Shown here: piece by piece, positions 23,498 through 40,814 of the stretch
How positions within the stretch are numbered: position 1 is the first letter of the stretch
Layout: every line of letters starts with the position of its first letter
DNA from: a virus
Virus record (IMG/VR): IMGVR_UViG_3300048042_000182
Location: 1-41,979 of that record
Reading direction: 5' to 3' (one strand)
Length of the DNA stretch: 41,979 bases
Translations under genes and position numbers: made by a program
The notes under the pieces: generated by a model
What the model was told of the DNA's origin: nothing
The model's database searches: none
What the model saw: the letters and a program-made list of their open reading frames with translations, nothing else

Positions 23498-23518
23498 CGA
23501 TTGAACCCAAGATGCGTA

Positions 23519-24730: not shown

Positions 24731-24756
24731 GCTTTCTCAGAGAGTTGATACCCACC

Positions 24757-24960
24757 GTGGATTTTACTTCGTTTAGCACCGAATTCCGAGAGGCTGCCAA
24801 AATACGCGGCATAGTTGCCGACGTTGCCCGGCGGCTTCACTTGTCGCACGAGCACGTAAGGCAAGTTGCTCTGGGCGCGCGAACCAGCAAACGAGTGGCT
24901 AAGGCACTGTCCACTGAGCTGCGCCAGCGAAAGCGCCAGGATCGTGAGCAAGCGGCATGA
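24757..24960 (+). CDS. Small HTH regulator (Ner/Cro-like)
   Basis: A 67-residue protein, the first early gene. IRGIVADVARRLHLSHEHVR followed by QVALGARTSKRVAKAL forms a HTH domain. In Mu the first gene of the early operon is ner, a Cro-like repressor that shuts down early and repressor transcription; this gene has the same place and size. GTG 24757 is chosen because it lies about 20 bp after the predicted transcription start; an earlier ATG (24610) would extend over the promoter and the repressor gene. Ribosome site is weak (GAGAG). The stop overlaps the next ATG (ATGA). Confidence 0.68.
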   Translation: MDFTSFSTEFREAAKIRGIVADVARRLHLSHEHVRQVALGARTSKRVAKALSTELRQRKRQDREQAA

Positions 24961-27337: not shown

Positions 27338-28335
27338 TGCCAATTCTCGCTAGCCACAAAGCTCATCTTCAATCGCTGGGGCTGCCCTGCGATGCGGACA
27401 CGATCCGGAGGGCTCGACATTTTGTGCTTCGGGCCGGACTCACTCTGGCCGAGTTTGCCGACCTGGCTAATCTCAACCCGTCGTCCCTCCGTGTCTATCT
27501 CAGCGGTCACTATGACGCCCACCAGGGAGCCGAATCCAACACGCTCGCTGTCCGTGCCGCCCTAAAGCAACTGATGGACCGATACGAGATCGAGCACATC
27601 GAGCCGCTCCAGGGTACGCACTATCCGACCGCCGAATACGAGGCGGTGCGGAAATCGATGTGGACAGCATTGCGGCAGGGAACCTCTGCTCTCGTGGACG
27701 GCCCTCCGGGGACCAAGAAGTCCTACACCTTCCACCAGGTCATCGACGAGATCAATAAGTCGCGTGAGGGACACGCTTTCTACGTGTACGTCGAGATCAA
27801 CCAGAGCCCGCAGAGCTTTCTCATTGAAGCATGTACCGTGGCCGGCATTCCGAATCGAGGAACAATTGGCCAGATGATGCGTAAACTGCGCTTCTTCTTG
27901 AGCGGCCAGCGCACCCTCCTGGTCGTCGATGAAGCTCAGCACCTTGGCGTCGCCGGCATGGAGGTACTACGCGAACTATTGGACACGCCTCCCTATTTTG
28001 GCGTCGTGCTGGGCGGATCGCATGATCTCTCGGTTAGACTGCGCGACTGGCGCATGGAGCAGTGGCGCTCTCGTTTGCGTCGTACTCATCTGCTTATGGG
28101 GCTGACCGAGTCCGAGGCCGCGGAGATCCTTACGGGCGAACTGGGACCGATGCATCCCCAGGACATCGCGGATACCATCGCCGACGCCACGGTCGAAGCC
28201 GTTCGCGACCGCAAGACCTTCAAGTACATCTCAGCCCGTAATCTCTTCTTTGCAATCGAGGACGCCAAGCTCGCACTGGCCGAATCCGCTGTCAATTCGA
28301 AGCCGGAACCGGAAGAGCAGGAGGCCATCGCATGA
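27337..28335 (+). CDS. B: AAA+ ATPase target-DNA activator (MuB homologue)
   Basis: A 332-residue protein (MuB has 312). Residues about 36-57 form a HTH (LTLAEFADLANLNPSSLRVY). Walker A is GPPGTKKS at 122-129, Walker B LLVVDEAQ at 194-201. The C-terminal helical domain follows. MuB binds target DNA and stimulates MuA strand transfer, and gives target immunity. The start is GTG and overlaps the transposase stop by one base, so both are translated together. Confidence 0.96.
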   Translation: MPILASHKAHLQSLGLPCDADTIRRARHFVLRAGLTLAEFADLANLNPSSLRVYLSGHYDAHQGAESNTLAVRAALKQLMDRYEIEHIEPLQGTHYPTAEYEAVRKSMWTALRQGTSALVDGPPGTKKSYTFHQVIDEINKSREGHAFYVYVEINQSPQSFLIEACTVAGIPNRGTIGQMMRKLRFFLSGQRTLLVVDEAQHLGVAGMEVLRELLDTPPYFGVVLGGSHDLSVRLRDWRMEQWRSRLRRTHLLMGLTESEAAEILTGELGPMHPQDIADTIADATVEAVRDRKTFKYISARNLFFAIEDAKLALAESAVNSKPEPEEQEAIA

Positions 28336-28616
28336 CGCCCCCGTTGCCTACATCCTTGCAGCAGATGCTCGACACCGAAACTGGACCTGAGCCTTTGGGC
28401 GTTCCGGTGCGCGGCATCTGGTCGCAAGCCATGACCTGGACGCCCACCGAGGAACAGCTTCGCCACATCGTGAGCCGTGCCACCCGCTCCCTGCGGCTCT
28501 TTAACTCCGTGCTGAATGTCGCCGTGATCTTTGCTGTGATCTACCTGGTCGTCGAGATCGGCGCGGCCTTCCTGCACGGCGGAGCCGTGGAGCGCGTTTT
28601 GGGAGGCGCGCAGTGA
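28332..28616 (+). CDS. Small membrane protein after B
   Basis: A 94-residue protein with one hydrophobic segment (NSVLNVAVIFAVIYLVVEIG at about 58-77) after a soluble N-terminal half. The ATG overlaps the stop of B (ATGA). No family is recognised; the topology fits an inner-membrane early protein. Confidence 0.6.
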   Translation: MTPPLPTSLQQMLDTETGPEPLGVPVRGIWSQAMTWTPTEEQLRHIVSRATRSLRLFNSVLNVAVIFAVIYLVVEIGAAFLHGGAVERVLGGAQ

Positions 28617-28801
28617 TTGAGCGCTACATCCTGATCCGCTGCGATCTTTGCAAGGACACCTCCGACACCGAGGATCTGGCGATCGTTACTGAGACACAGT
28701 TTCGCCGCGATCTCAAGAAACTCGGCTGGCTGTTCGAACGTGAGACGCGCCTCCACGACAAGATGGACCGCTGCCCCAACTGCGCTACCGGAGGCCACTG
28801 A
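28613..28801 (+). CDS. Small zinc-ribbon-like early protein 1
   Basis: A 62-residue protein with CDLC near the N-terminus (residue 10-13) and CPNC near the end (54-57), the two halves of a zinc ribbon. GTG start overlapping the previous stop. It is one of several small Cys-rich proteins in this operon. Confidence 0.58.
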   Translation: MIERYILIRCDLCKDTSDTEDLAIVTETQFRRDLKKLGWLFERETRLHDKMDRCPNCATGGH

Positions 28802-29058
28802 TGCAGATCCCTGAACACATCTCCTGCGACGTATGCGGCCAGCCCAAGGGCGCCACCAATCACTGGCTGATCGCCATCACGGATCCGCATCCCGGCACGG
28901 TAGGCATCGCCTTCGGAAAGCTTGGCCAGGAAGTCGGCGACCCGGACTTCAAGCTTGAACATCTCTGCGGCCAGGCCTGCGCCCACAAGCGGCTCTCGCA
29001 ATGGCTTGACGAACTCAACGCACCTGCTCCAACAACCCAACAAAGTGAGGCAGCATGA
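28801..29058 (+). CDS. Small zinc-ribbon-like early protein 2
   Basis: An 85-residue protein with CDVC near the N-terminus and HLCGQACAH (residues about 54-62) in the C-terminal half, probably one zinc site. The core HWLIAITDPHPGTVGIAFG is beta-rich. The ATG overlaps the previous stop by one base (TGATG). Confidence 0.58.
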   Translation: MQIPEHISCDVCGQPKGATNHWLIAITDPHPGTVGIAFGKLGQEVGDPDFKLEHLCGQACAHKRLSQWLDELNAPAPTTQQSEAA

Positions 29059-29633
29059 CCACCGATAAGAAGTCAGCACCCACAGCCACCGAGATCGACG
29101 ATCTTTGCCTGAAGTTCGATACGGCCAAGATCGCCGTCGAGAAAGGCCAACAGGCTTTCTCAGCCGCCAAAGGCGATCTGCTGGCCATCGTGCAGGATTA
29201 CGGCTACACGCCAAGCCACGCCGAGAAGACCACCAGGATGGAGGGGGCGCTCTACATCGCCGACGCCACCGTAGCCACCACAGTTGTGGTCAACGAGGGC
29301 CCAGTGGGAGAGCTGCAGAGCGAACTCTCGCGGCTGAAGAGGCCGAAGGTCTTCGGCTCTCTGTTTGAGCGCAAGGTGAAGCACACCCTCAAAAAGGACG
29401 CAGCCAGCACGCTCAAGCTGCAGATCGGCAGCTTTGAACTCGAAACGCAGAAGCGTCTGCTCGGACTCTTCGCTGGGTGCTTCACTGCAGACTCAAAGGC
29501 TCCGGCGCTCAGCGTAGACCTGGCCGCGGCGTTGCGCCAGAAGGAAGCCGAAGCGCAAGCGAAAGCCGAAGCGAAAGCAGCCAGGGCCGCAGCCAAGGAA
29601 GTGAAGGCTGCGAAGAAAGCTGGCCGCAAATGA
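29055..29633 (+). CDS. Unknown early protein with Ala/Lys-rich tail
   Basis: A 192-residue protein. Residues 10-50 form a helix (EIDDLCLKFDTAKIAVEKG), the middle part is mixed with conserved-looking GYTPSHAEKTTRMEG and FERKVKHTLKKDA, and the last 40 residues are an Ala/Lys/Glu repeat helix. The place two to four genes after B matches that of Gam in Mu, but I see no sequence resemblance to Gam, so I do not name it so. ATGA overlaps both sides. Confidence 0.55.
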   Translation: MTTDKKSAPTATEIDDLCLKFDTAKIAVEKGQQAFSAAKGDLLAIVQDYGYTPSHAEKTTRMEGALYIADATVATTVVVNEGPVGELQSELSRLKRPKVFGSLFERKVKHTLKKDAASTLKLQIGSFELETQKRLLGLFAGCFTADSKAPALSVDLAAALRQKEAEAQAKAEAKAARAAAKEVKAAKKAGRK

Positions 29634-30178
29634 CCGTGAACGCAACCGGATTCTCCACCCGCGACCTGATCGTGCTGGACGCTCTCGAACATTGCCGACT
29701 GCCCGTTGAGATCACCGCCCTGGCCGAGATGTTGCGCTCGGCCAGTCAGCCCCCCGTGGGCATCGGCGAGCTTGGTACGATCCTCCGCGACCTGCTCTCT
29801 GAAAACGAAGTGAATCGTATCGATGGGCCCGACAGCAGTGTGCCTTGCTGGGCCATCACGCGCGGCGGTGTGGACCGCCTCGTGGACGCGAAGAGCGATG
29901 CGGCTCTGGCTGATCGGGCGTCGAAGCTGGAGGAGCCGCCAACGGCGCTCCTCTGCATCGACGAGGACGAGCTGGACAACTGGTGGCAGAACCTCGATGT
30001 GGAGCAAAAGGCCGATGCATTCTCCGGCTACACGCTCGATCCCTCCGGCAGCCGTTCTCACATCTACATCGAGCCGGCCATTCACGTCCTGGGCACCATT
30101 GGCGCCGATGCCGTCCGTAGAGCGAGCCAGGATCTGAGAGACATGGAATCTCAGGTAAAAGCGGCGGTGCGGCAATGA
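29630..30178 (+). CDS. Winged-helix-like early protein
   Basis: A 182-residue protein starting at ATG 29630, overlapping the previous stop (ATGA). Residues about 8-80 have a winged-helix pattern (TRDLIVLDALEHCRLPVEIT, then ALAEMLRSASQ, a recognition-type helix and a beta wing ending WAITRGGVDRLVD). The rest is mixed and acidic with NWWQNLDVEQ. A DNA-binding regulator or a chromatin-type protein is likely; the target is unknown. Confidence 0.5.
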   Translation: MTVNATGFSTRDLIVLDALEHCRLPVEITALAEMLRSASQPPVGIGELGTILRDLLSENEVNRIDGPDSSVPCWAITRGGVDRLVDAKSDAALADRASKLEEPPTALLCIDEDELDNWWQNLDVEQKADAFSGYTLDPSGSRSHIYIEPAIHVLGTIGADAVRRASQDLRDMESQVKAAVRQ

Positions 30179-30513
30179 TCCAAGGAAGCCACAAACCCTG
30201 CTTCGCCGCCGGTTGCGAGACTGTCGTTGCGCGACACCTGCTCATGTGCCCGAAGCACTGGAACCAGGTTCCAGCCGATTTGCAACAGGCGGTAGAGCGC
30301 ACGCTTGCCGACTGGCAAGCCGGTGGCACCCCGCGCCCCTACATCATCGCCATCAAGCAGGCGCGGACCGCCGTGGAGACCGGGCAGAAGCGCGCGGAGG
30401 CCGTCGCAAACGGTCCCGACTTCGACGCCTGGTGGGCGCGGCAGAGCCGTGAGACCAGAGCACGGATTTACGCGGGGAATCGCTCTATCCGCGTGGAAGG
30501 GATCGTGCGATGA
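30175..30513 (+). CDS. Small Cys/His-rich early protein 3
   Basis: A 112-residue protein. CFAAGC near the start and HLLMCPKHW (residues about 21-29) make a possible metal site (Cys-x4-Cys … His-x3-Cys-x2-His). A basic helix follows (AIKQARTAVETGQKRAEAV) and a basic C-terminus. Unknown family; ATGA overlaps on both sides. Confidence 0.55.
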   Translation: MIQGSHKPCFAAGCETVVARHLLMCPKHWNQVPADLQQAVERTLADWQAGGTPRPYIIAIKQARTAVETGQKRAEAVANGPDFDAWWARQSRETRARIYAGNRSIRVEGIVR

Positions 30514-30734
30514 GCCAGACAGCTCTCAGCGCCGCATACAAGAACGTATCCCGCCGACTTGACGACCTGGACGCTGTGTTTGGACAGGCCCCAAACGCCG
30601 CAATCAATCTCAACGCCGCCATCGTCCTGGCTGAGGCTCTCGACGCGCGGATCGGCGCGCTCATAACCGGAGTCGGCCTGCTGCGCCACGAAGCCACCCG
30701 CGTAATCGCAGCGCGGAAAGGAACAACGGCATGA
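30510..30734 (+). CDS. Unknown small helical early protein
   Basis: A 74-residue mainly helical protein (KNVSRRLDDLDAVFGQAP, ALDARIGALITGVGLLRHEA). No motif recognised. Tight overlaps with both neighbours show that it is translated within the operon. Confidence 0.5.
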   Translation: MSQTALSAAYKNVSRRLDDLDAVFGQAPNAAINLNAAIVLAEALDARIGALITGVGLLRHEATRVIAARKGTTA

Positions 30735-30961
30735 GGAAGGTGACGAAATCCCATGACGCGTGGGCATTCTGGCGGCACTCTCAGACCGCAATCAATGACC
30801 TCAGCGATGTCATGCAGCAGCTCGCCACGGCCGTCGCGCAGGACGATCCCACGCTGCAGCTCCCGCCGCATGTTGTGAGGCAGGCAAAGCGCGCTCTGGC
30901 CAGGTTCCAGGAGAACTTCACTCTGCTCGTCCGCGAACAAAAACGGAAGGCGGCACGCTGA
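30731..30961 (+). CDS. Unknown small basic early protein
   Basis: A 76-residue helical protein with a basic C-terminus (NFTLLVREQKRKAAR) and a central DLSDVMQQLATAVAQDDPTL helix. No family is recognised. ATGA overlap upstream, TGATG overlap downstream. Confidence 0.5.
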   Translation: MRKVTKSHDAWAFWRHSQTAINDLSDVMQQLATAVAQDDPTLQLPPHVVRQAKRALARFQENFTLLVREQKRKAAR

Positions 30962-31263
30962 TGCTACTTACAGGCTATCTGGGACCGAAGGAGCGTTGGC
31001 ATGCCGAACTGGAGCGCGTGAATAAGCCCGGACTGCTTGCGGCCATTGAGTCTCTGATGCTTCATCTGGATGTAATCACCGGCGGGATGGATCGCGACTC
31101 GCTGCTTAAGCTGGTTCGGCAATCGAAGCAATACGGAAAGTGGGACGTGGTGGACAAGCGGAATGCACGGTTCATGGCAGATCCGCAGAAGGCTATCGAC
31201 GAGAGCTTTCGGCGTTCGCGAGCGGCCAAGAAGGCCGCGCGGCGCAGAAAGAAGAGCCGCTGA
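30961..31263 (+). CDS. Unknown small early protein with basic tail
   Basis: A 100-residue protein. N-terminal YLGPKERWHAELERVNKPG and a helix pair precede a strongly basic C-terminus (RSRAAKKAARRRKKSR), which could bind nucleic acid. The start overlaps the previous stop by one base. Confidence 0.5.
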   Translation: MLLTGYLGPKERWHAELERVNKPGLLAAIESLMLHLDVITGGMDRDSLLKLVRQSKQYGKWDVVDKRNARFMADPQKAIDESFRRSRAAKKAARRRKKSR

Positions 31264-31517
31264 TGGCCTGTGAAATCCGCTACGACGATCAGGGCAAGGT
31301 CACGATGTTCCTCTGCGGACGCAGCCGCCGGCAGACCTGCAAGTTCTGCCACAACGGCTACGTGACCAAGCTCTGCGACTATCCGGCAGCCAAAGGCAAG
31401 ACGTGCGACGCCGGCATGTGCACCAGGTGCGCTACCAACATCGCACCCGAATTGGACTACTGCCCAACCCACAAGCATCAGGCACCCCCACCGCAACGCA
31501 ACCTCTTCGGGGAGTAG
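31263..31517 (+). CDS. Small zinc-ribbon-like early protein 4
   Basis: An 84-residue protein with about nine Cys/His in its middle: CKFC, CDYP, CDAGMCTRC and YCPTHK, enough for two zinc sites. ATG 31263 overlaps the previous stop; a longer in-frame reading from 31140 lies within the preceding gene and is not used. Unknown family. Confidence 0.58.
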   Translation: MACEIRYDDQGKVTMFLCGRSRRQTCKFCHNGYVTKLCDYPAAKGKTCDAGMCTRCATNIAPELDYCPTHKHQAPPPQRNLFGE

Positions 31518-31519
31518 AC

Positions 31520-31990
31520 ATGCAAACGCTATTCGAACTGCGTACCGATGACGACCTTCGCCGCGAAGCTGTGGCCAGCAACGAGCGGCGCATCCACGAG
31601 GTTCTGCTGGGCCACGGCCCATGGGAACTGACCGAGCGCCAGCGCACGATCCTGGAATGCCTCCGCGGCCGCCAGGGTCGGCTGCTGGCCATGTCAATAA
31701 ACGATCTGGTCGACAAACTCGGAGTGGATCCGCGTGCCATCAAGGGTGATGTGCGCGAACTCGTGGTGAGCTTTCGGTTGCCGATTGTCGCCAGTCGCGA
31801 CGCTGATGATGGAGGCTACTTTTTTGCCGTCACCGCGGAGGAGCGCATCTCTGGCACCGCACACTACCTGAAAGAGGCCGTCAAGCTCATCCGTCGCGCA
31901 GCCATCATCCGCACCGAAACCGACATGCAAACGCTTCTCGGCCAGGTCGCCCTCGACCTGAACCAAAGCGAAGAAAGGATCTCCAGATGA
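31520..31990 (+). CDS. Winged-helix early protein
   Basis: A 156-residue protein. Residues about 36-105 have a winged-helix pattern: LTERQRTILECLRGRQG, SINDLVDKLGVDPRAIKGDV (recognition helix) and a beta wing in SRDADDGGYFFAV. The C-terminal helix pair may dimerise. ATG 31520 has GGGGAG upstream. This is a possible DNA-binding regulator of the middle or late genes. Confidence 0.58.
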   Translation: MQTLFELRTDDDLRREAVASNERRIHEVLLGHGPWELTERQRTILECLRGRQGRLLAMSINDLVDKLGVDPRAIKGDVRELVVSFRLPIVASRDADDGGYFFAVTAEERISGTAHYLKEAVKLIRRAAIIRTETDMQTLLGQVALDLNQSEERISR

Positions 31991-32097
31991 CTCCGAGAGA
32001 ATCGGGTCGAGCCATGATGATCGGCAGCTTATGCCTGATGATCGCAACCGCCTTCGGCATCTTTATCGGCTTTCTCATCGGGCTCTTTTGGAGGTAG
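31987..32097 (+). CDS. 36-residue single-pass membrane peptide
   Basis: A small gene overlapping the previous stop by ATGA. After MTPRESGRAMM a hydrophobic run of about 21 residues ends FLIGLFWR. The upstream coupling and a ribosome site for the next gene at its end (GGAGG) support it. A small membrane peptide of unknown role. Confidence 0.5.
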   Translation: MTPRESGRAMMIGSLCLMIATAFGIFIGFLIGLFWR

Positions 32098-32099
32098 AG

Positions 32100-32297
32100 T
32101 TGGCAAACACACGCAAACTGCAAAACGAAATAGACCGCATCCGCCGTGAATCGGACGCCCTGCTGGTGCTCATCATCCAGCCGGATTGGGGCTATATCTC
32201 GACTGACCCCAGACTCGCCCCAAAGGATGCAATCGAAACCCTTCGCAACGAGATCCCGAGCCTTGCGGACTACCTGCAAAAGAAAGCGGCACGATGA
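32100..32297 (+). CDS. Small early protein with TTG start
   Basis: A 65-residue protein. GGAGG at 32090-32094 stands 5 bases before TTG 32100, better than any upstream ATG in this frame, whose leader lies in the preceding gene. Helical core NTRKLQNEIDRIRRESDALL, then DWGYISTDPRLAPKDAIE. Unknown family. Confidence 0.55.
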   Translation: MANTRKLQNEIDRIRRESDALLVLIIQPDWGYISTDPRLAPKDAIETLRNEIPSLADYLQKKAAR

Positions 32298-32800
32298 CCA
32301 AGCAAGTCAAGAACGTCCCTCCCGACCCACGCCACTCCATTGTGAAGGGCCTGCTCGGTGCTTACTGGCTGCGCGAGAATCCCTCGATTCCGTCGCTGCC
32401 CTGGGGACCGGCCGATGCCGGTGCGCTTGGACAGTTCCTTCGCGCCAATCCGGACCTGGTCACCGAGATCGTAGCAACTTGCCTGGATAATCGTCTGCGC
32501 AGCGAAGACCACGCTCCGGCCGAGCGGGTGCATCGCTGGATCGGCGATCTGCTGCGCTATGCCAGCGGCCCGCTCAACAAATTCAAGCAGCCCATGCGCG
32601 ACTCAGCTCTCTCGGCCGAAGCCTCTGTGGGTTCTTACAAGCCTGGCAAGACCTGGGGCGCGCCACTCCCCGAGGAGACCATCCGGCAGTTCATGGGTGA
32701 GGAGTGGTTCGAGCGCGCGTGCAAGCGCCTGAAGTCCGACCCCTCGAAGCTCAATGAAACAGAGCGCAGATGCCTCCGCGATGAAGGGATGCTGGCGTAA
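32294..32800 (+). CDS. Unknown early protein
   Basis: A 168-residue protein. Its core (WIGDLLRYASGPLNKFKQPM, EEWFERACKRLKSDPSKLNE) is helical and charged. It ends the stretch of overlapping early genes; a 59-bp gap without gene follows, with AGAGGAG before the next ATG. Family not recognised. Confidence 0.52.
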   Translation: MTKQVKNVPPDPRHSIVKGLLGAYWLRENPSIPSLPWGPADAGALGQFLRANPDLVTEIVATCLDNRLRSEDHAPAERVHRWIGDLLRYASGPLNKFKQPMRDSALSAEASVGSYKPGKTWGAPLPEETIRQFMGEEWFERACKRLKSDPSKLNETERRCLRDEGMLA

Positions 32801-32859
32801 CGGGCCCAGCAGTTAAACCGCTGTGACTACGGTACTCGCGCACTAAGAGGAGCACGCCA

Positions 32860-33114
32860 ATGACAGGGCCGTTTATCGAAGACCGCAACACTGAGTTTCT
32901 CGTGTGCTGCTACTGCCATCGAATTGTGGCGGTCGGCGCTCTAGCTGAAGATGGAACCCCGCTTGCGGCTGATCACATGCGAAAGGTAGAGGCATCCGAA
33001 AAGTTAACGTTTCGCGGACGCTCTATTTCAAAGATCAAATGTTCGGGATCACTTCGCGAGGGGTTCTGCAAGGAGCAAAACAAAGTACGGAATTCGCATT
33101 CAGGAAGCTTGTGA
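32860..33114 (+). CDS. Small Cys-rich protein 5
   Basis: An 84-residue protein with VCCYCHRI near residues 15-22 and KCSGS and FCKEQ later, compatible with a metal site. AGAGGAG stands 9-10 bases before the ATG. It overlaps the next start by one base. Unknown family. Confidence 0.5.
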   Translation: MTGPFIEDRNTEFLVCCYCHRIVAVGALAEDGTPLAADHMRKVEASEKLTFRGRSISKIKCSGSLREGFCKEQNKVRNSHSGSL

Positions 33115-33398
33115 TGTGGAAGATGCGGAGACTGCTGGCATGGGAACATCCCCAACTGTGGCACCTACAGGTTGATGAATCCAACGGGTACTACAGGACT
33201 GCTTGCGGCTTGCGTTTCGGAGTAGCGGGAAGTGCGACCAAATCAACCGTTCCCGCTGGAGCTTGCAGTAAATGCCTACGGGCAACACAGGCATCGTCGC
33301 GATGGGAACGGCGGCACATAAGAGGAACAACACACAGGGGAGAAAGCGGGACATGGAATACCGAAGGCAATGTCAGCGGATGGGGTGCAAGAACCTAA
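33114..33398 (+). CDS. Small Cys-rich protein 6
   Basis: A 94-residue protein starting at ATG 33114, overlapping the previous stop by one base; AGGAAG lies just upstream. ACGLRFG and ACSKCLRA make a possible zinc site (Cys at about residues 31, 50 and 53). The C-terminal third is polar and overlaps the next gene by 46 bases in another frame, so its last part may not be constrained. Confidence 0.45.
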   Translation: MWKMRRLLAWEHPQLWHLQVDESNGYYRTACGLRFGVAGSATKSTVPAGACSKCLRATQASSRWERRHIRGTTHRGESGTWNTEGNVSGWGART

Positions 33399-33529
33399 TC
33401 GATCCAAAGCGCAGACTGCAGAAATTCTGCTCGGACGCGTGCAGGCAAAAGGACGGCCGAGAAATGCGGAAGCTCCGGGCGCCCATTCTCTGCGACCACT
33501 GTAAGCAAGCTCTCAACAAGAAGGACTAG
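33353..33529 (+). CDS. FCS-like zinc-finger protein 7
   Basis: A 58-residue protein starting at ATG 33353 (GGGGAGAAAGC upstream). CQRMGC, FCSDACRQK and CDHC make a compact zinc-binding domain; the RRLQKFCSDACRQKDG stretch resembles FCS-type fingers of phage proteins. A nucleic-acid or protein-binding role is likely, target unknown. Confidence 0.58.
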   Translation: MEYRRQCQRMGCKNLIDPKRRLQKFCSDACRQKDGREMRKLRAPILCDHCKQALNKKD

Positions 33530-33531
33530 CC

Positions 33532-34044
33532 ATGCAGATTACCAAACCACAACTCGGCCGACTCCAAACCCTCTACGCGCAGTTCGCCCGCCGCGAGATC
33601 GGCGTAGGCGTCTCGCGCGCCGCGCGGATCGCCTGGGCGACAGAGCGGCTGCACAAGAGCGTGAGCAGCTTCAGTGACCTGACGATGGAGGATGCCGGCT
33701 GGCTGATCGACCAGCTCCAGCAGCAGCTCGGCATCAAGGCGCCACTCAAGAGCCGCCCTGACCGCGACCAGGCGCGCCGCGCCGGCCTCGACGGCCGCAA
33801 GGATGGTGCAGAGTTCGCAGCTGCTCCGCAGATGGCCACAGCGCAGGATCTGCGCCGCATCCAGGCTATGATCTCTCAGCTTGGCTGGAGCCATGACACC
33901 TACGCCAACTTCATCGCCTCGCAGCGCAGCCCGCTCGCCAAGCGCGCCGACAAGCAGATCCGCACCACCGCCGACGCCAACAAGGTTTGGTGGGCACTCA
34001 AGCGCATCGCCCAACAGAAGGGCGTGTGGAGGAAGACCGCATGA
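33532..34044 (+). CDS. GemA-like (DUF1018) regulatory protein
   Basis: A 170-residue protein. Residues about 1-75 are helical; residues about 100-168 read QMATAQDLRRIQAMISQLGW and HDTYANFIASQRSPLAKRAD followed by ANKVWWALKRI, which resembles the second half of DUF1018 (GemA, Mu gp16) proteins. GemA acts on gyrase expression and host regulation in Mu. Resemblance is moderate. AAGGA stands upstream; the stop overlaps the next ATG (ATGA). Confidence 0.55.
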   Translation: MQITKPQLGRLQTLYAQFARREIGVGVSRAARIAWATERLHKSVSSFSDLTMEDAGWLIDQLQQQLGIKAPLKSRPDRDQARRAGLDGRKDGAEFAAAPQMATAQDLRRIQAMISQLGWSHDTYANFIASQRSPLAKRADKQIRTTADANKVWWALKRIAQQKGVWRKTA

Positions 34045-34577
34045 TTCCACACTTCAGCGCAGATCAACTAATTCTGCCCTTCGCCGAAAAGGAATACGTC
34101 AATGTGAACCGGACGGCCCGGATACTCGGTGTTGGCATCACCACCGTCTATCGGCTAGCCAGGCTGCAGGATAAAACGGGACACACTTTGCTGACCCTCG
34201 TCGAGTATCGTCCCCAGGCGCGCAAGCGGATTCTCTATTCGTCGATCGTGCGGTTCTGCGACAGCTTGCGTACGCGCTATGGCATCGAGGACCGCAGGCC
34301 CAAACTCGATCACCCGATGTTCCGGCACCGTGACGAGGATCTGCTCCCATTCCCGTTGAGCGACACAATCGGCAGCATTGAAGCGCTGAGCGCGCTGGGG
34401 CATGAAGACACCCGGCCACTCGTCTGCCTCATCGAAGAGGGGCGCTTTGACGCCTACCAAATCATGCGCGAATCTCCCTGGAGGATCTCGCGCGGCTCCT
34501 TCAAGGCATTCTTGGCCTCCACACGCGACCGCGAACTCGCCACACAGCGCAATTTCACCACCGCAATCCATTCATAA
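34041..34577 (+). CDS. Double HTH DNA-binding protein (excisionase-type folds)
   Basis: A 178-residue protein with two MerR/excisionase-type segments: residues about 18-45 (YVNVNRTARILGVGITTVYR) and about 120-165 (VCLIEEGRFDAYQIMRE, then SPWRISRGSFKAFLAS). The second carries the helix-wing-helix pattern ending in SFKAFL that is typical of HTH_17 proteins. No Mor/C-type activator is seen elsewhere in the prophage, so this and the winged-helix early protein are the best candidates for a late-gene activator. ATGA overlap with the GemA-like gene. Confidence 0.6.
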   Translation: MIPHFSADQLILPFAEKEYVNVNRTARILGVGITTVYRLARLQDKTGHTLLTLVEYRPQARKRILYSSIVRFCDSLRTRYGIEDRRPKLDHPMFRHRDEDLLPFPLSDTIGSIEALSALGHEDTRPLVCLIEEGRFDAYQIMRESPWRISRGSFKAFLASTRDRELATQRNFTTAIHS

Positions 34578-34602
34578 GCCTCCCGCGCGTGAAGATGCCT
34601 TC

Positions 34603-34995
34603 ATGGCATCTATTTCTATCGCCTCTATCTCCATTCCTAATTGGGATCTCAGCTCTGACGTTGCACTACGTATCTATGCGCTCCAGAGCTTCATCGCCGC
34701 AGACGGCACCATGATGGCGGCCGGCGTTCCCAGCGAAGACTCCTCGCAAAACGACAACTTCTTTGAGAGCGTACCCTGCACGCTGACAGGGACCACGCTG
34801 GCGATCGCCGCGTGCACGCTCGAATCCACCACTGACTCGCAGGACAATCCGAGCGCTCAGTACGGGGCCTACTTCTTCACCACCGAAGGGCAGCGCCTTG
34901 GAACCTTTGCCGAGTTCGCGACCTTCTCGCTGCCACCAGCGCCGACCAGCACCACCTGGAACGCCATCGCCATCGCACAAAAGGGAGCACTATGA
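34603..34995 (+). CDS. Small fibre-associated protein
   Basis: A 130-residue protein rich in Ser, Thr and Ala with beta-like segments (SVPCTLTGTTLAIAACTLES, GAYFFTTEGQRLGTFAEFAT). It directly precedes the long fibre gene and overlaps it by ATGA. It is probably a structural or connecting protein of the fibre module. The ribosome site is weak; the ATG 34603 is the first one after the previous gene. Confidence 0.55.
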   Translation: MASISIASISIPNWDLSSDVALRIYALQSFIAADGTMMAAGVPSEDSSQNDNFFESVPCTLTGTTLAIAACTLESTTDSQDNPSAQYGAYFFTTEGQRLGTFAEFATFSLPPAPTSTTWNAIAIAQKGAL

Positions 34996-37900
34996 AGCGC
35001 CTGTTGATTGCAGTACTGCTGTTTTGCAGCGCATCCATCTATGCGCAGAACACCGTCGTAACGGCCACCAATTTCGTGGACGGCGGCGCGAACAAGATAC
35101 AGTCCGGCAGAATCACCATGCTGCCGACCGATATCAATGGCAACCCAATCAACGCCTCGCTGGGCACATCTGCTGGGCTCATGCTGCCGCGCGCGGCCGT
35201 TTGCCTCATCGCGAACGGCGCGATCACCACGACGCCCACGGGCGGCGTCTGCACGGTGCTGGATACCTCGCTTACTAACTCCTCCCACTTCTGCTATAGG
35301 ACGACAGTGATCGACACGGTCACGCAATGGACAGCGCCCGTCATGGCGTGCGTGCAGCCGACAGGATCGACCTGGACCTTTGATACCTATGTTCCGCCAG
35401 CAGCTCCTACGGCCCAGGTAGTTGTAGGCCCGACAGGTGCGGCAGGACCTGCATGCTCCACCGGCACCGGCACATGCAACATGACCGTGCCAATCGTACT
35501 TCCGGCGAATCCAACGACCGCCTTGCAAGCTGCCACAAAGCAATATGTGGACTCCGCAACAGCGCCTCTGCTCCCCGCAAATGGCGTGACAACTACGCCT
35601 GGAGGCGGTCTTCAAGCAAGCACCGTCGTGGCTGGCGCTGCGACGGTGAGCGGACCGCTGTCTCAGACCGTCACAAACCCTCCCGCGATTCCGACAGGGT
35701 CGCTCTCGTTTTATGGGATGTATCATGCGCTCACGTTCAATGGGCCTGAATTCGTGCAAAGTGTATGCACATCAACGTGGTGCTCAGAAGGTAAGGGAAT
35801 ATCGAAATCTAGCGTGGTGGTAACTTCACCCGGTTGGAATCGAGGATCTTTCTCCGGATTCACTACGCCCCCCCAAGGTGGCTGGAGTGAGCGAGGAATC
35901 CACTATTCTACCATCACAAATTATGGAACCGGCCAACTCATCGACTATGCCTTCAAAACTCAGGCTGGCGTTGGAGATTTTCAAGGCATCTACGATGTAA
36001 TGTGGGATTATGGCGAAGGCTTGGCTCCAACAGATGAAGGATTTTCTTATTTTGGCTCTCAAGGCGGGGAATCGCCCACTGCCAATGCTGCCTCTGTAGC
36101 TCTCGGTGGTTTTGGAACAGTGTCACTGTCGGTGACGTGCCCGAGCACAAATGATTGCAACTTTGGCGGCAGCCGCTATCTCCTCGACCTCTCTCAACCT
36201 GTTGCGGCGGGATATGCTACAGGGTATGCAAGCTCCCAGCATTTCTTTGGAAGTTCGACGGCTATTCTTCCTGGGGCAACCGCTGAAACTCCAGAACAGT
36301 ACACGGCGGTCATCACGAGTGGCACAGTCACACCTTCGGTAGCGTGGGGTACGCTAGTCAGCGATCTACTCACCCCAATTAGCGACCCTGTAGGTACAGG
36401 GACAACCGCTGAGGTCGCAACCGTTACCATGGCGGGAGGCAGCGGTAGCGCAGTCACGACATCGACTCTCGCGTGCTTTGCTGGAACATTTCACGAGCAA
36501 GCGTACCCCGCGAGTGTTTCGTGGAACAGCGGGACTAGTACACTTACTGCCACGTTTAACCTTCGCCAACCGCACGAGCACGGAAGTTATGTCTACTTCG
36601 GGGGAATGTGCGGCGATTACGTGGTGTTCACTGCGAACATCTCCGATGGCTTGCGGTACCCTGTGGACGTGTTAGGCGCTATCGACGCAACGCATCTAGT
36701 GACGCGCGCCTTTGCATTTGGACAAAACCCGTCGTTAGTACCGTCTAGTTATGGTAATACCCTGTTCATGGCCACGGGGGCCACGGGGCTAAGTCGCTCG
36801 GGCTCAACGGTTGCCATGCATATTGGCTTGTGGTCAGGAAATCTACCCTACTACAACGGTGCATCAAAACTGTTCATTTCTGGTGACGCCACGGGAAAGT
36901 TCAATGGTCTGTGCACGGCTGCGACTTACGCTACAGCAACCAGCACTCTTACCTGCACGCAGGCAGGCACGAGTGGTGACACATCCACTGCGGCCACGAT
37001 TGCAGTGGGTGACAATGCCTATGGTAACGTCGATTTCACGATTTACCCCGGCGCAGAAGTCCTCAGTTCCGACAATTTGCAACAGAACATTCTCGCAAGT
37101 CCGAGTGTGCGAACTGGTAATTTGAATGTTGAACCTAACAACACGACTTGGGGCATAGGCGACTCTGTCGAGGAAGAGCACGCAACCGTCAGAGCGTACC
37201 ATACGCAAAACCTTAGCTTGAGCGTACATAATCCCGGTCAAGTTGGCACCGCAAACGCACTGCTTGAGGGGATCAAGCTTAATTGGGGCGGGTCTGGCAT
37301 AACTGGAAATGGCTATGGACCCAACCATGGATCTGGCAATAACGCCATGAACATCTCTAACGGTGCACCAGTTACGAATTATCAATACTATGGTGGCGTT
37401 CAACCGCCTCCAAATGGATTTTCATTCATTGGACCTGTTGGCCAGCTTATTGGTAATAGTCCTGCGTACGGTTCTTATGGTCTGTATTACTCCGCTCCCT
37501 TCACGGCTACCGTTGGTGGAGTAACTGTCGGTGGGGTCAATGATCCTAACTTCTTCTATTCTCCCCTTGTCATGACCGGGGCGGCAGGACTCGACACTTT
37601 TACGTATACGCCATTTAATGACACCTTAAAATTGGTGATGAATAGTGCAAGTGGCGGCTGCACATTCACGTTCGCTCCAACCGGATACTCCAATTCTGGT
37701 AGTGGATGTATCTCTAGTCCCTATATTACTGATCAGTCGTCACCACAATCTATTGCTGGTGGTTCAAACGCAAATGGCACTGTATATACTTCGTGGAGTG
37801 CTTATGCACCACTCCCTGAATGGGATCAGTGGGTTCCTACGTCAACAGGGTACTGGTGGGAAACTGGATGGGCTGCTGATACTGGCGGTGGATTTTCAAT

Positions 37901-38312
37901 CATGCAAAATGCTGCTCCAACTTCAAATAAAGCACCGTATCAGGTTGTTAGTCGTAGGACATGGAGCTTTTACAATAACGTAACCAACACTGCGAATAAC
38001 TATGATGTTACGTTGAAAGCTCAAAACGAAAGTAGCTCAAGTACTAAGACGTTTTGTTTGGGCAACTGCACACTTGCAGCGACAAGCCAACTGCCTCTCG
38101 TCGGGACCGCGACCACAACTGCAAGCGCCTCTGATTCTGTTGCAGTGCCTGGACTCACTTCAAGCGGGCACTGTGGAGCGCCAGCGGCTACCAATGCAAC
38201 TGCGGCAGGGCTAACCGGTGTCTACATTGGCGTGGCTGGCAGCGGCACAGTGACCCTTTACCATAGCGCGACGGCGGGTGGAACGTTCAATGTGATTTGC
38301 ACGCCGAACTAA
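34992..38312 (+). CDS. Tail-fibre-like protein with signal peptide
   Basis: A 1106-residue protein, the largest gene of the right arm. It begins with a typical Sec signal peptide (KR, hydrophobic core, SIYAQ). Residues about 140-160 include a collagen-like VVGPTGAAGPA, about 180-215 the fibre repeat ATKQYVDSA. The long middle, roughly 230-1010, is Gly/Ser/Thr/Asn/Tyr-rich beta structure; its DNA (about 35.7-38.05 kb) is clearly AT-richer than both flanks, which suggests an exchanged receptor-binding part. The last about 90 residues are again GC-rich and start SQLPLVGTATTTASASDS. A signal peptide is unexpected for a fibre assembled in the cytoplasm. It could be exported adhesin-like protein instead. 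Confidence 0.68.
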   Translation: MKRLLIAVLLFCSASIYAQNTVVTATNFVDGGANKIQSGRITMLPTDINGNPINASLGTSAGLMLPRAAVCLIANGAITTTPTGGVCTVLDTSLTNSSHFCYRTTVIDTVTQWTAPVMACVQPTGSTWTFDTYVPPAAPTAQVVVGPTGAAGPACSTGTGTCNMTVPIVLPANPTTALQAATKQYVDSATAPLLPANGVTTTPGGGLQASTVVAGAATVSGPLSQTVTNPPAIPTGSLSFYGMYHALTFNGPEFVQSVCTSTWCSEGKGISKSSVVVTSPGWNRGSFSGFTTPPQGGWSERGIHYSTITNYGTGQLIDYAFKTQAGVGDFQGIYDVMWDYGEGLAPTDEGFSYFGSQGGESPTANAASVALGGFGTVSLSVTCPSTNDCNFGGSRYLLDLSQPVAAGYATGYASSQHFFGSSTAILPGATAETPEQYTAVITSGTVTPSVAWGTLVSDLLTPISDPVGTGTTAEVATVTMAGGSGSAVTTSTLACFAGTFHEQAYPASVSWNSGTSTLTATFNLRQPHEHGSYVYFGGMCGDYVVFTANISDGLRYPVDVLGAIDATHLVTRAFAFGQNPSLVPSSYGNTLFMATGATGLSRSGSTVAMHIGLWSGNLPYYNGASKLFISGDATGKFNGLCTAATYATATSTLTCTQAGTSGDTSTAATIAVGDNAYGNVDFTIYPGAEVLSSDNLQQNILASPSVRTGNLNVEPNNTTWGIGDSVEEEHATVRAYHTQNLSLSVHNPGQVGTANALLEGIKLNWGGSGITGNGYGPNHGSGNNAMNISNGAPVTNYQYYGGVQPPPNGFSFIGPVGQLIGNSPAYGSYGLYYSAPFTATVGGVTVGGVNDPNFFYSPLVMTGAAGLDTFTYTPFNDTLKLVMNSASGGCTFTFAPTGYSNSGSGCISSPYITDQSSPQSIAGGSNANGTVYTSWSAYAPLPEWDQWVPTSTGYWWETGWAADTGGGFSIMQNAAPTSNKAPYQVVSRRTWSFYNNVTNTANNYDVTLKAQNESSSSTKTFCLGNCTLAATSQLPLVGTATTTASASDSVAVPGLTSSGHCGAPAATNATAAGLTGVYIGVAGSGTVTLYHSATAGGTFNVICTPN

Positions 38313-38352
38313 GTTGTATGCACTGCGGTGCCTGGGGAAACCCAAGGGATAG

Positions 38353-38380
38353 GGGTAGCGGCTCTGCAAGACCGCTACCC
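38353..38380 (+). terminator. Terminator-like hairpin after the fibre gene
   Basis: GGGTAGCGG and CCGCTACCC form a perfect 9-bp stem with a 10-base loop, followed by GTTTGGTTGTG. A smaller GNRA hairpin (TGGG-GAAA-CCCA) lies just before it, at about 38330-38343. The region 38313-38428 holds no gene. Confidence 0.6.
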
Positions 38381-38428
38381 GTTTGGTTGTGACCGGGCAC
38401 ACATTCGAAGGCCTATCTGGGACCTATC

Positions 38429-39439
38429 ATGTTCGACTTAACCATGGAAACCATCACAACTCAGATTGCCTATCTCGGTCCGGCCCTGAACGAGGGGATT
38501 ATGGACGTCAGAGACCTTGCGCCAGCTTTGATCGGTCTCAGCGACTATGTTCAGGATGCGAACCGGGTTCTCTACGGTGACGGAAACAAAGTGGAAGTCC
38601 AAGTCCACTCAAATTTCGAGCGCGGTTCGTTCATCGTCACGATCAGCATTCTCCACACCCCAATCCAAGCATTTGTACAGCTCTTCTCGAACCCGGCTGC
38701 GTCAGCGTTGGCGAATTTACTGGGGCATCTCGGCCTGATACCGCTTGCGACTGGATATAGCTTGATAGGGCTGATCAAGGCCCTTAAGGGCAAACTCATC
38801 AAGCCAGCCGAGGGAGACAAGACAAAGGTCGAGATAGTCATTGATGGGAAGAAAGTGACCATCGAGATTGACAACGACTTGCTGAAGCTTTACAACAGCC
38901 CAACCGTGAGGGAGGCAGCGCGAAGGATGCTCGAACCTCTCCGCCGTGAAGGCTTTGACGAATTTCAGACAAGACATAATGAAAAGCCGGTCGAGTCTGT
39001 AGCTGCAGATGAAATTGGTTACTTCGATTTCAAGCCCGAAGGAGACTCCCCTTTAACCCAGGATCGACAGGTGGTACTTGAGATCGTTAAGCCATCGTTC
39101 AGACGGCACCTTGCATGGAATTTGGCGGAGGGTGAGTCTGATTTTTCGGCACACATCGAAGATCCAGACTTCTGGTCAGATGTGGATAAGCGGACCGATC
39201 TATTCGGAGCTGGGGACTCGCTGCGCGCCACCTTGCATGAAGAGGTGCAAAAGAAGCAGGAAGGCGGTTTCAGGGTGCAGAGGACGATCACAAAGGTCCT
39301 TGGTGTAATTCGCCCTGAGAAGCCCTCACAGCGTCCACTTTTTGATGTGCCCAAGACGGATGAACCAGAGAAAACTCCGAAGGATTCCGGTCCTTTGACC
39401 AAGCCCAACCGGAGTCGACAGGTGCGGTGGCTCCAATGA
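38429..39439 (+). CDS. Cargo protein of unknown function with central hydrophobic region
   Basis: A 336-residue protein near the right end. Residues 1-60 include GIMDVRDLAPALIGLSDYVQ and NRVLYGDGNKVEVQV, then FERGSFIVTISI, a pattern I have seen in uncharacterised proteins of many bacteria but cannot name. Residues about 75-135 contain two hydrophobic segments that could span a membrane. The C-terminal half is soluble, charged, with a beta-rich domain and a basic tail. Lying outside the operons, at the end of the phage, it looks like accessory cargo (moron); defence or superinfection exclusion is only a guess. An internal ATG at 38444 is an alternative start. Confidence 0.62.
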   Translation: MFDLTMETITTQIAYLGPALNEGIMDVRDLAPALIGLSDYVQDANRVLYGDGNKVEVQVHSNFERGSFIVTISILHTPIQAFVQLFSNPAASALANLLGHLGLIPLATGYSLIGLIKALKGKLIKPAEGDKTKVEIVIDGKKVTIEIDNDLLKLYNSPTVREAARRMLEPLRREGFDEFQTRHNEKPVESVAADEIGYFDFKPEGDSPLTQDRQVVLEIVKPSFRRHLAWNLAEGESDFSAHIEDPDFWSDVDKRTDLFGAGDSLRATLHEEVQKKQEGGFRVQRTITKVLGVIRPEKPSQRPLFDVPKTDEPEKTPKDSGPLTKPNRSRQVRWLQ

Positions 39440-39450
39440 TGTACAAGTCA

Positions 39451-39474
39451 GCAGGCCGGATCTCTCCGGCCTGC
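39451..39474. terminator. Bidirectional hairpin between convergent cargo genes
   Basis: GCAGGCCGG-ATCTCT-CCGGCCTGC is a perfect 9-bp stem with a 6-base loop between the 39439 and 39481 gene ends. T runs are short, so efficiency is uncertain, but the position between convergent genes is typical. Confidence 0.65.
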
Positions 39475-39480
39475 GACGGT

Positions 39481-40341
39481 TTAAAGGTAGGACGGCGCAT
39501 GCATTCGATATTCCTCCTGGAGACGGGCCGGAGCACTATGCAGATAGCGCATCGTTGTGTCGATGTACACATGCCCGAGCTGCTCTTTGATTGCAAGCAA
39601 CCCGCTCCCCTGGTTAAGCATATTGGCGCCGAGACTATGCCTCACCAGGTGGGGGTAAACGCGCCTTGTAATCCCGGCGCGCTTGGCCGCGACGCGCACC
39701 AATTTTCTGAGGTCCTGCTGTTGCATCCGGTGGCCGTGGCGAACGGTCAAAAACATCCAGTCGTCGGGTTGCCCAGCGCGAACCGCGAAGTATTCCATCA
39801 TCAGCGCGCAGCAGGCAGACGAGATCATTACCGCGCGTTCCTTGAGCTTCTTCGTCCCGTTGATATGGAGCAGCTGGTGGGCAGTGTCGAGGTCGCGGAT
39901 ACGGAGCCAGCAGATCTCTTTGTTGCGGCCGCCGCTGTACGCCAGGAGAGCCAGAATCGCCTTCTCGCGGAGCGTCTTGCTGGCGCCGATCAATCGCGCC
40001 ACCTCGGCCTGCGAGAGGGCTCCTGTCACCAACGTCTGAGGTTGCTTCGGCCGTGCCAGATGAATCCCGATGTGCATGAAAGCGCCATACCTTTCGAGCG
40101 CGATCGAGGTGTTGACCAGGTGCGAGTGCGAGTATCCTTTCTTGCGCATTTCGGCGATGAGTTTATCCACCGCGCGCGCCGTCGGCCGAACGCCCAGGAC
40201 GGGCATCAAACGGCGCATTGTCGAGAGGTAATTACCGATCGTGGTCTCGCCCAGGCCGACCTGGGCGGAGAGGTAGACAGCGAAGTTTTTGAGGACGGTG
40301 TCGGGGTTGAGATTGCGGGGTTTCGGGGCGCGATTCTGCAT
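39481..40341 (-). CDS. XerC/D-like tyrosine recombinase (cargo)
   Basis: A tyrosine recombinase of about 286 residues, nearest in layout to XerC/XerD. Counting from the upstream ATG at 40356, catalytic residues are Arg144 (SGGRNKEIC), Lys169/170 (GTKKLKER), His236 and Arg239 (HLVRHS), His262 (QLGHVYIDTT) and the nucleophile Tyr271 (TTMRYLH). All are present, so it should be active. The N-terminal SAM-like core-binding domain is at about 15-100. I prefer ATG 40341 because GAGGAAG stands 6 bases upstream. It lies at the right end, read against the cargo gene, beside the terminal sites; a DDE phage does not need it for integration. Confidence 0.9.
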   Translation of the reverse strand: MQNRAPKPRNLNPDTVLKNFAVYLSAQVGLGETTIGNYLSTMRRLMPVLGVRPTARAVDKLIAEMRKKGYSHSHLVNTSIALERYGAFMHIGIHLARPKQPQTLVTGALSQAEVARLIGASKTLREKAILALLAYSGGRNKEICWLRIRDLDTAHQLLHINGTKKLKERAVMISSACCALMMEYFAVRAGQPDDWMFLTVRHGHRMQQQDLRKLVRVAAKRAGITRRVYPHLVRHSLGANMLNQGSGLLAIKEQLGHVYIDTTMRYLHSAPARLQEEYRMHAPSYL

Positions 40342-40367
40342 CGGATTCTTCCTCATTTTTGGGCACG

Positions 40368-40390
40368 AAAAAGCCGCCAGAATTGGCGGC
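40368..40390 (-). terminator. Leftward terminator just before the recombinase gene
   Basis: Reading leftward: GCCGCCA, ATTC, TGGCGGC, TTTTT. A 7-bp GC-rich stem with a T run, 12 bp before the first ATG of the recombinase gene. It can stop transcription entering from the host integrase promoter or act as attenuator in the recombinase leader. Confidence 0.78.
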
Positions 40391-40675
40391 GTGGGTGAAG
40401 TTTTAAGGTGGCCATCCAGGCTAAGGAGATGGCGTGAAGCGTTATCTAGTGGTAAACAGCTACGGTTTTCTGTAGATTTCTCATTTCAAGCCCTTTATGC
40501 GGCTAGATCAGGCTGATGTTTGAGCTGTCCAGAACCCGTAAACGGCCATCTGGCGCGGGTTCTGTGAGTTTTCCACTTTTTGGGTATCGTCGGGTTTGCG
40601 GGGTGTTTTGCGGGCCGACTGAAGTTTTACCTGAAATCAACAACTTAGCGAAGCGGAGCGGGCGATTTTTCCCCT

Positions 40676-40697
40676 CTACTCTCACTCAATTCCTGTA
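40676..40697 (-). repeat. End site R2
   Basis: On the minus strand TACAG, seven bases, GTGAGAGTAG. It has the same orientation as R1 and shares TACAGGAATT with it; the two sites are 106 bp apart. Confidence 0.78.
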
Positions 40698-40781
40698 TGG
40701 TGTTTCGCTCGATGTACTGTGGAAAAGCGTGCCGTACCCGCGTCAATCCCGTCGTTTCCCGCCGCCGCCCGCCGTATACCG

Positions 40782-40803
40782 TCACTCTCATGTAATTCCT
40801 GTA
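40782..40803 (-). repeat. End site R1
   Basis: On the minus strand TACAG, seven bases, ATGAGAGTGA, exactly 6 bp inside the right terminus, mirroring L1. Confidence 0.82.
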
Positions 40804-40809
40804 CTCACA

Positions 40810-40814
40810 TCCAT
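40810..40814. repeat. Right target-site duplication TCCAT
   Basis: Second copy of the 5-bp target, after the terminal …CTCACA of the prophage, identical to 431-435. Confidence 0.93.

What the first reader, a model, noticed from the sequence alone, without database searches (positions are those of the whole stretch)
38429..40341. Right-end cargo: an unknown protein facing a complete tyrosine recombinase
Two convergent genes insulated by hairpins on both sides sit beside the right end of a phage that integrates by DDE transposition. The recombinase keeps Arg, Lys, His-x-x-Arg, His and Tyr. Possible roles are resolution of dimers or cointegrates after replicative transposition, inversion of a nearby segment, or a passenger. 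The partner has a motif pattern (MDVRDLAPAL, FERGSF) seen in uncharacterised proteins and could be a defence or exclusion factor.
Basis: partly seen in the sequence, partly recalled or inferred. Interest (0 to 1): 0.63.

Follow-up and report, generated by a model that had tools for sequence, protein, structure and literature searches.

The report
Prophage exclusion gene beside fibre-linked recombinase
Near the right end of a Mu-like prophage sit two unrelated modules: a probable, untested gene that shields the host from other phages, and a recombinase that in many different phages lies beside the host-recognition fibre gene.

Summary
The prophage is 436-40809 (TGT...ACA, paired MuA-type end sites, 5-bp duplication TCCAT) and sits in another element's integrase gene; joining the flanks restores the reading frame. 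The 38429 gene is a LAPAL-family protein (NF053583; PADLOC candidate PDC-S42). NCBI calls it 'putative structural', but 15 of 55 relatives lie just downstream of a CI-type repressor on the same strand and 7 lie beside an integrase. Its C-terminal half has an OB fold and matches a mycobacteriophage Pipsqueaks protein encoded in a region where related phages express lysogenic defence genes. I read it as a lysogen-expressed exclusion factor; no defence assay exists. The recombinase is complete and Xer-like, without an arm-binding domain. It is not LAPAL's partner: no other LAPAL locus carries it. In 15 of 17 testable loci it lies beside, or one gene from, a tail-fibre-type gene, including in a non-Mu-like phage (69% identity). 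That favours fibre-locus recombination (compare bifidophage Rin) over cointegrate resolution. I found no inverted repeats or alternative fibre segments, so inversion is unproven. In a sibling phage an acyltransferase fills the gap between fibre and recombinase.

The parts
431..435 (.). left copy of the 5-bp target-site duplication TCCAT
436..40809 (.). the prophage, 40,374 bp, ends TGT...ACA, Mu-like
   Evidence: end sites, duplication and restored host reading frame; MuA/MuB
442..484 (+). two MuA-type end sites at the left end (TACAGN7RTGAGAGT; the one at 442 has 1 mismatch)
   Evidence: no shuffle reached 6 matches (largest 4)
25457..27337 (+). MuA-type transposase
   Evidence: PHROG 310, 7.6e-67
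27337..28335 (+). MuB-type ATPase
   Evidence: PHROG 296, 6.6e-26
34992..38312 (+). fibre-type protein, 1106 aa, N-terminal signal-peptide-like segment; N-terminal ~150-216 aa shared with five other phages, the rest mostly unrelated
   Evidence: homologues in L093, L100, L130, L132, L125
38353..38380 (.). hairpin between fibre gene and LAPAL gene
38429..39439 (+). LAPAL-family protein (NF053583 / PHROG 3243 / PDC-S42), predicted lysogen-expressed exclusion factor
39451..39474 (.). hairpin just after the recombinase stop codon, between the two convergent genes; hairpins also follow the stop codon in L122, L130 and L132
39481..40341 (-). armless Xer-like tyrosine recombinase, 286 aa, fibre-linked family
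40373..40390 (-). intrinsic terminator on the strand of the recombinase, about 30 bp upstream of its start codon
40678..40803 (-). two MuA-type end sites at the right end (40678-40697 and 40784-40803)
40810..40814 (.). right copy of the duplication TCCAT

Best explanation
The two genes are separate modules that share the right-end region of a Mu-like prophage. (1) The 38429 gene is a LAPAL-family protein. Shown by sequence and model: an N-terminal alpha/beta part with the LAPAL motif, a glycine-rich hydrophobic segment and a C-terminal OB-fold domain. Inferred: it is made in the lysogen and blocks superinfecting phages, with the OB domain as sensor and the hydrophobic segment acting at the membrane, comparable in role to lambda RexAB. 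(2) The recombinase is an armless Xer-like tyrosine recombinase of a family whose home is next to tail-fibre-type genes. Shown: the linkage in most testable loci, a fibre family in this lineage with a shared N-terminus and an otherwise divergent remainder, and different genes in the gap between fibre and recombinase. Inferred: it recombines DNA at the fibre locus to change the fibre or the gene next to it; it does not integrate this phage.
For: LAPAL: PDC-S42 1.6e-68. Upstream neighbours of relatives are mostly repressors. 15 of 55 relatives lie within 1.5 kb downstream of a CI-type repressor on the same strand, 11 of them within 300 bp; 7 of 55 lie within 1.5 kb of an integrase. In E. coli the gene directly follows the S24/XRE repressor. 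In Listeria phage vB_LmoS_188 it lies between a gene annotated 'putative superinfection immunity protein' and the integrase. OB fold: best solved matches are the SSB Rim1, probability 1.00, TM-score 0.55-0.60 on the target. Homology of residues 139-296 to Pipsqueaks gp31, HHalign probability 97.2, encoded between lysin/holin and integrase; centrally located cluster N genes are lysogenically expressed and confer defence (PMC6426596). Sibling phage L100 has a hexapeptide acyltransferase in the same gap. Recombinase: 15 of 17 testable loci place it beside or one gene from a fibre-type gene (PHROG tail families). The 69%-identical homologue is in a phage with a J-type tail protein and no detected MuA in its locus. 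No arm-binding domain.
Against: No defence assay exists for any LAPAL protein known to me. Some relatives lie among head genes (PHROG head/neck/portal families in about 3 upstream neighbours each, head protease families in 3 and 2 downstream neighbours), which fits NCBI's 'structural' label. In this phage the gene is far from the repressor. Only 34 of 58 members reach the usual hydrophobicity threshold for a membrane helix. For the recombinase, no convincing inverted repeats of 18 bp or more and no alternative fibre segments were found; the best 11-bp candidate (35796 / 39504) is near chance and was not found in the sibling. L160 has no fibre-type neighbour and L133 is unclear.
Confidence: 0.55

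Rival explanations
1. The LAPAL protein is a minor virion component, as NCBI's family name suggests, and the right-end position is incidental.
For: NCBIfam name 'putative phage structural protein'; some family members have head-gene neighbours.
Against: Repressor- and integrase-adjacent positions are far commoner; the family occurs downstream of repressors in E. coli prophages and on Burkholderia and Caballeronia replicons; no structural match to virion proteins among the top Foldseek hits.
Confidence: 0.15
2. The recombinase resolves multimers or transposition cointegrates (Xer/dif-like or TnpI-like).
For: Closest solved relatives are archaeal XerC-like/XerA and XerD; a 208-aa tyrosine recombinase of phage phiCbK was given such a role by its authors (PMC3556154).
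Against: It recurs in phages whose loci show no Mu-like transposase and does so beside fibre-type genes; no palindromic site upstream of the gene was recognised in the window.
Confidence: 0.2
3. The recombinase is a simple DNA invertase that flips the fibre gene end, a tyrosine counterpart of Gin, like Rin.
For: Armless tyrosine recombinase next to the receptor-binding protein gene, as in Rin (PMC6109161); [quoted passage not shown]
Against: No second fibre segment in opposite orientation; inversion between those 11-bp matches would reverse LAPAL and cut the recombinase's own 3' end; not seen in the sibling.
Confidence: 0.2
4. The recombinase is an inactive passenger; a terminator upstream of its start keeps it silent.
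For: Terminator 40373-40390 on its own strand about 30 bp before the start codon.
Against: All catalytic residues are kept in family members at 39-68% identity to this one, which indicates purifying selection.
Confidence: 0.1

Closest known systems
LAPAL family NF053583 / PHROG 3243 / PADLOC PDC-S42
   Same: Full-length profile match above the NCBI cut-off (206 vs 60 bits), same conserved residues.
   Different: C-terminal tail of about 40 residues beyond the family model; position at the right end of a transposable phage.
Lambda RexAB and the RexAB-type system of Pseudomonas putida prophage P1 (PMC12894663)
   Same: In lambdoid E. coli prophages LAPAL occupies the slot directly after the repressor gene. 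Possible functional analogy: a nucleic-acid sensor part plus a hydrophobic part in one protein.
   Different: No detected homology; one gene instead of two; no phenotype known.
Pipsqueaks gp31 (mycobacteriophage cluster N)
   Same: Homologous to LAPAL residues 139-296; also encoded between the lysin/holin genes and the integrase.
   Different: Lacks the LAPAL N-terminal half; its own function was not found in the papers read.
Rin shufflon of bifidophages (PMC6109161)
   Same: Armless, XerD-like tyrosine recombinase beside a receptor-binding protein gene.
   Different: No alternative C-terminal cassettes and no repeated crossover sites found here.
Gin/Cin of phages Mu and P1
   Same: Recombinase and fibre gene near the right end of a transposable phage (Mu).
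   Different: Gin/Cin are serine recombinases with an invertible segment; here a tyrosine recombinase without one.
XerA/XerC/XerD
   Same: Closest solved structures; same size and core.
   Different: Scores far below the XerA/C/D equivalog cut-offs (156.6 of 220, 108 of 335, 107 of 330).

Membership tests
LAPAL family NF053583 | score above the curated cut-off over the whole model | tested here: met
   206 bits vs 60, residues 13-294 to model 3-291 of 292
LAPAL family NF053583 | being a phage structural protein (the family's name) | tested here: inconclusive
   neighbours mostly repressors and integrases, a few head genes
PADLOC PDC-S42 | profile match | tested here: met
   1.6e-68
PADLOC PDC-S42 | anti-phage activity | not testable with these tools
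   PDC entries are candidates only; no paper in the library holds PDC-S42
tyrosine recombinases | catalytic R, K, HxxR, H, Y | tested here: met
   R139 K164 H231 R234 H257 Y266 invariant in A8
tyrosine phage integrase of this phage | phage ends are att sites made by the recombinase | tested here: not met
   ends are TGT...ACA with a 5-bp duplication and MuA-type sites
XerA/XerC/XerD | equivalog score cut-off | tested here: not met
Rin-type receptor-binding-protein shufflon | armless tyrosine recombinase adjacent to the receptor-binding protein gene | tested here: met
Rin-type receptor-binding-protein shufflon | alternative C-terminal cassettes flanked by inverted short crossover sites | tested here: not met
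   sites as short as 11 bp cannot be excluded
Gin/Cin DNA invertases | serine recombinase | tested here: not met
   Pfam PF00589, tyrosine type
Mu-like transposable phages | MuA/MuB, TG...CA ends, 5-bp target duplication | tested here: met

The most novel reading that the evidence does not exclude
The recombinase family is the engine of a widespread fibre-locus exchange system: it swaps or captures cassettes at the fibre gene in unrelated phages, and in this transposable lineage the slot now captures host-protection genes such as LAPAL or an acyltransferase, so host range and superinfection exclusion are exchanged at one site.
Probability: 0.2. Interest if true: 0.75.

Novelty: new variant of a known kind. 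Interest (0 to 1): 0.5.

Why it matters
It suggests that a protein family now labelled 'putative structural' and found in 34 of 5,426 complete E. coli genomes (one version) is instead a lysogen-expressed phage-exclusion gene, which a simple plating assay can settle. It also identifies a family of tyrosine recombinases tied to fibre-type genes across diverse phages. Tyrosine recombinases acting on receptor-binding protein genes have, as far as the papers read show, been reported only for the bifidophage Rin system, described there as the first phage-encoded tyrosine DNA invertase (PMC6109161).

Tried and rejected
(a) Host-gene origin of the pair: rejected, the phage end is at 40809. (b) Conserved pair: rejected. 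(c) Invertible segment with repeats of 18 bp or more: none in six of seven regions of recombinase loci; only weak pairs in AT-rich L140, and only weak pairs at a 15-bp threshold in the window. (d) Direct repeats at the edges of the cargo as traces of cassette insertion: none of 8 bp or more in the window, L100/L122 or L130; one 9-bp match in L132 near chance. (e) Hairpins as recombination sites: those after the recombinase stop codon look like terminators between convergent genes. (f) Relation to EACC1 or DUF7946: one of 50 members matches EACC1 at 0.0026 and three match DUF7946 at best 6e-4, all too weak; a search for EACC1 in 61 genomes found none. (g) Protein scans of viral contigs with single sequences found nothing; alignments were needed. 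(h) The single genome-contig scan gave only one 29%-identical protein. (i) The host of the phage could not be named.

Full report
WHAT IS THERE. The window is an IMG/VR virus record of 41,979 bases. The two genes exist as described: a 336-aa ORF at 38429-39439 (+) and a convergent ORF at 39481-40356 (-). For the second, ATG at 40341 follows a GAGGAAG ribosome-binding-site-like motif, so 286 aa is the likely product. Hairpins lie at 38353-38380, 39451-39474 and 40373-40390; only the last was flagged as having the T-run of an intrinsic terminator.

WHERE THE PHAGE ENDS. The right flank codes on the - strand for the N-terminal part of a tyrosine integrase, matching phrog_1 positions 120-357. The left flank codes for the C-terminal part, phrog_1 371-478. 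The sequence TCCAT occurs at 431-435 and at 40810-40814, directly outside TGT...ACA ends. The motif TACAGN7RTGAGAGT occurs twice near each end in mirror orientation (442 with one mismatch, and 465, on +; 40678 and 40784 on -). With up to two mismatches the window has 6 matches; 100 shuffles gave a mean of 0.93 and at most 4. Joining the flanks with one TCCAT copy gives an uninterrupted integrase frame across the junction (...EDFIFAGRSGNF|MDPSNYRKRVLHKL...). The prophage is therefore 436-40809, 40,374 bp, and both genes are inside it. It sits in the integrase gene of another element; a frame change just upstream of the junction suggests that integrase gene is also damaged.

THE 38429 GENE. It matches NCBIfam NF053583 (LAPAL motif-containing putative phage structural protein, 8e-61), PHROG 3243 (unknown function) and PADLOC PDC-S42 (1.6e-68). 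PDC entries are candidates, not tested systems (usage in PMC11514479), and no paper in the library mentions PDC-S42. Pfam has no match for this protein. A search of viral contigs found 130 encoded relatives, of which 80 loci were kept. In 50 aligned proteins G17, L30, A31, P32, L34, G66, F68, P170, W230, G235, D245, F248 and D263 are invariant.

CONTEXT OF THE FAMILY. PHROG tallies of the upstream neighbours are dominated by repressors and transcriptional regulators; downstream neighbours show no dominant family. Seven of 55 lie within 1.5 kb of an integrase. In E. coli, 34 of 5,426 genomes carry one version; in the two annotated ones I opened, the gene directly follows the S24 or XRE repressor, where lambda has rexAB (the rexAB comparison is from general knowledge). 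In Listeria phage vB_LmoS_188 it lies between a gene annotated 'putative superinfection immunity protein' and the integrase; in Lactobacillus phage A2 between lysin and integrase. Some members lie among head genes, which is the counter-evidence. No formal null was computed for the adjacency counts; a typical 40-kb phage has one repressor among several dozen genes, so 11 of 55 directly downstream is far above what random placement would give.

STRUCTURE. AlphaFold2 gave mean pLDDT 83.8 and pTM 0.66. The C-terminal domain (residues about 209-294) has the strand order of an OB fold, and the best solved matches are SSB proteins (Rim1, probability 1.00, TM-score 0.55-0.60 on the target), although no PDB hit reached E 0.001. 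The viral library gave Pipsqueaks gp31 (E 7.2e-6), and profile comparison confirmed homology over residues 139-296 (probability 97.2, E 3.3e-11). That gene lies between lysin/holin and integrase. According to PMC6426596, centrally located cluster N genes are lysogenically expressed and confer defence; that gp31 itself does so was not shown in anything I read. A glycine-rich hydrophobic segment (about residues 89-119 here) is shared by the family; 34 of 58 members reach a Kyte-Doolittle value of 1.6 over 19 residues. A membrane role is an inference.

THE RECOMBINASE. It is a complete tyrosine recombinase (Pfam 2.2e-34), closest by sequence among solved structures to archaeal XerC-like/XerA and to XerD, well below the XerA/C/D equivalog cut-offs, and without an arm-binding domain. 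Its closest relatives came from viral contigs through alignment-based scans: L130 (69%), L100/L121 (57%), L132 (55%) and about 20 more, mostly at 33-46%.

FIBRE LINKAGE. In the window, L100, L130 and L132 the recombinase is convergent with a fibre-type gene whose first 150-216 residues are related (27-38% identity; 100% over 216 residues in the sibling L093). Beyond that, similarity mostly stops: L100 and L130 align further, to about residues 360-410, and L125 and L132 share one short further match. L100 continues into a pectate-lyase-like helix and L125 into a collagen stretch. In more distant loci (L134, L136, L137/L139, L140, L150, L154, L155, L156, L158, L159, L161) the gene beside it, or one gene away, carries VGIGT-type repeats and/or a signal-peptide-like start. 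The fibre-type genes that I scanned from eight of these loci matched PHROG tail or virion families, two of them only weakly. L160 has no fibre-type neighbour and L133/L146 is unclear. That makes 15 of 17 loci in which the neighbours could be judged; loci cut off on the relevant side (L135, L138, L149, L153, L157) and the weak homologue L141/L162 were left out. L130, the closest relative, lies next to a 1,601-aa J-type tail protein (phrog_31, 2.2e-76) and shows no MuA in its 12.6 kb.

THE SLOT. Between the fibre gene and the recombinase the window holds LAPAL, L100 a 187-aa hexapeptide acyltransferase on the other strand, L132 a 206-aa ORF and L130 a short second fibre-like ORF; in L140 and L150 fibre and recombinase abut directly. 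Acyltransferases are known to alter phage receptors in other prophages (general knowledge), so the L100 gene could be another exclusion-type cargo; this is inferred.

MECHANISM. For the LAPAL protein, lysogen-expressed exclusion is most likely (about 0.65 on its own). For the recombinase, action at the fibre locus is most likely (about 0.6 on its own, with simple inversion only one form of it). Rin in bifidophages is the direct precedent (PMC6109161). What is missing here is any second fibre segment or repeated site: no inverted repeats of 18 bp or more in the recombinase loci except weak pairs in AT-rich L140, and one 11-bp inverted match in the window (35796 / 39504) that is near chance and not found in the sibling. 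Cointegrate resolution is not favoured, because the family is not tied to transposable phages. The pair itself is not a unit: in LAPAL loci the best hit of the recombinase profile outside the window is 73.8 bits (a generic integrase) against 458 for the window, and LAPAL is absent from the recombinase loci.

SCORES. The finding is real and both genes belong to families with untested functions. The surprise is moderate: 0.5.

Noticed in passing
window 40815-41979 and 1-430: The prophage interrupts the integrase gene of another mobile element, with an HTH_17-type (excisionase-like) ORF at 41740-41979; the integrase N-terminal part also has a frame change just before the junction.
   Followed up: partly
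window 34992-38312: The fibre-type protein begins with a signal-peptide-like segment, as do fibre-type proteins beside the recombinase in L100, L130, L132, L137, L154, L156 and L159. Unusual for a tail fibre; it might be exported by the lysogen.
   Followed up: partly
window 40373-40390: An intrinsic terminator lies on the recombinase strand about 30 bp before its start codon, leaving no obvious room for a promoter; expression of the recombinase is unexplained.
   Followed up: no
L134:1227-4995 vs L137:8396-12160: Two related phages align at 82% from the last ~190 bp of the fibre gene through the recombinase and onward, but not upstream in the fibre gene: a sharp mosaic border inside the fibre gene.
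   Followed up: partly
L080 and L082: Two other Mu-like phages carry LAPAL genes 5.6-6.6 kb from the transposase gene, without the recombinase.
   Followed up: partly
L091:2250-2804: Mycobacteriophage Pipsqueaks gp31 is a short homologue of the LAPAL C-terminal half in the cluster N central region; an easy defence test.
   Followed up: partly
L160:2787-6875: The one recombinase locus without a fibre-type neighbour has a large PHP-domain-like protein and nuclease-like ORFs upstream, possibly a defence locus (judged by eye).
   Followed up: no
L133:7109-8335: A gene with about eleven 69-bp tandem repeats lies beside two recombinase-family genes in a 177-kb contig.
   Followed up: no
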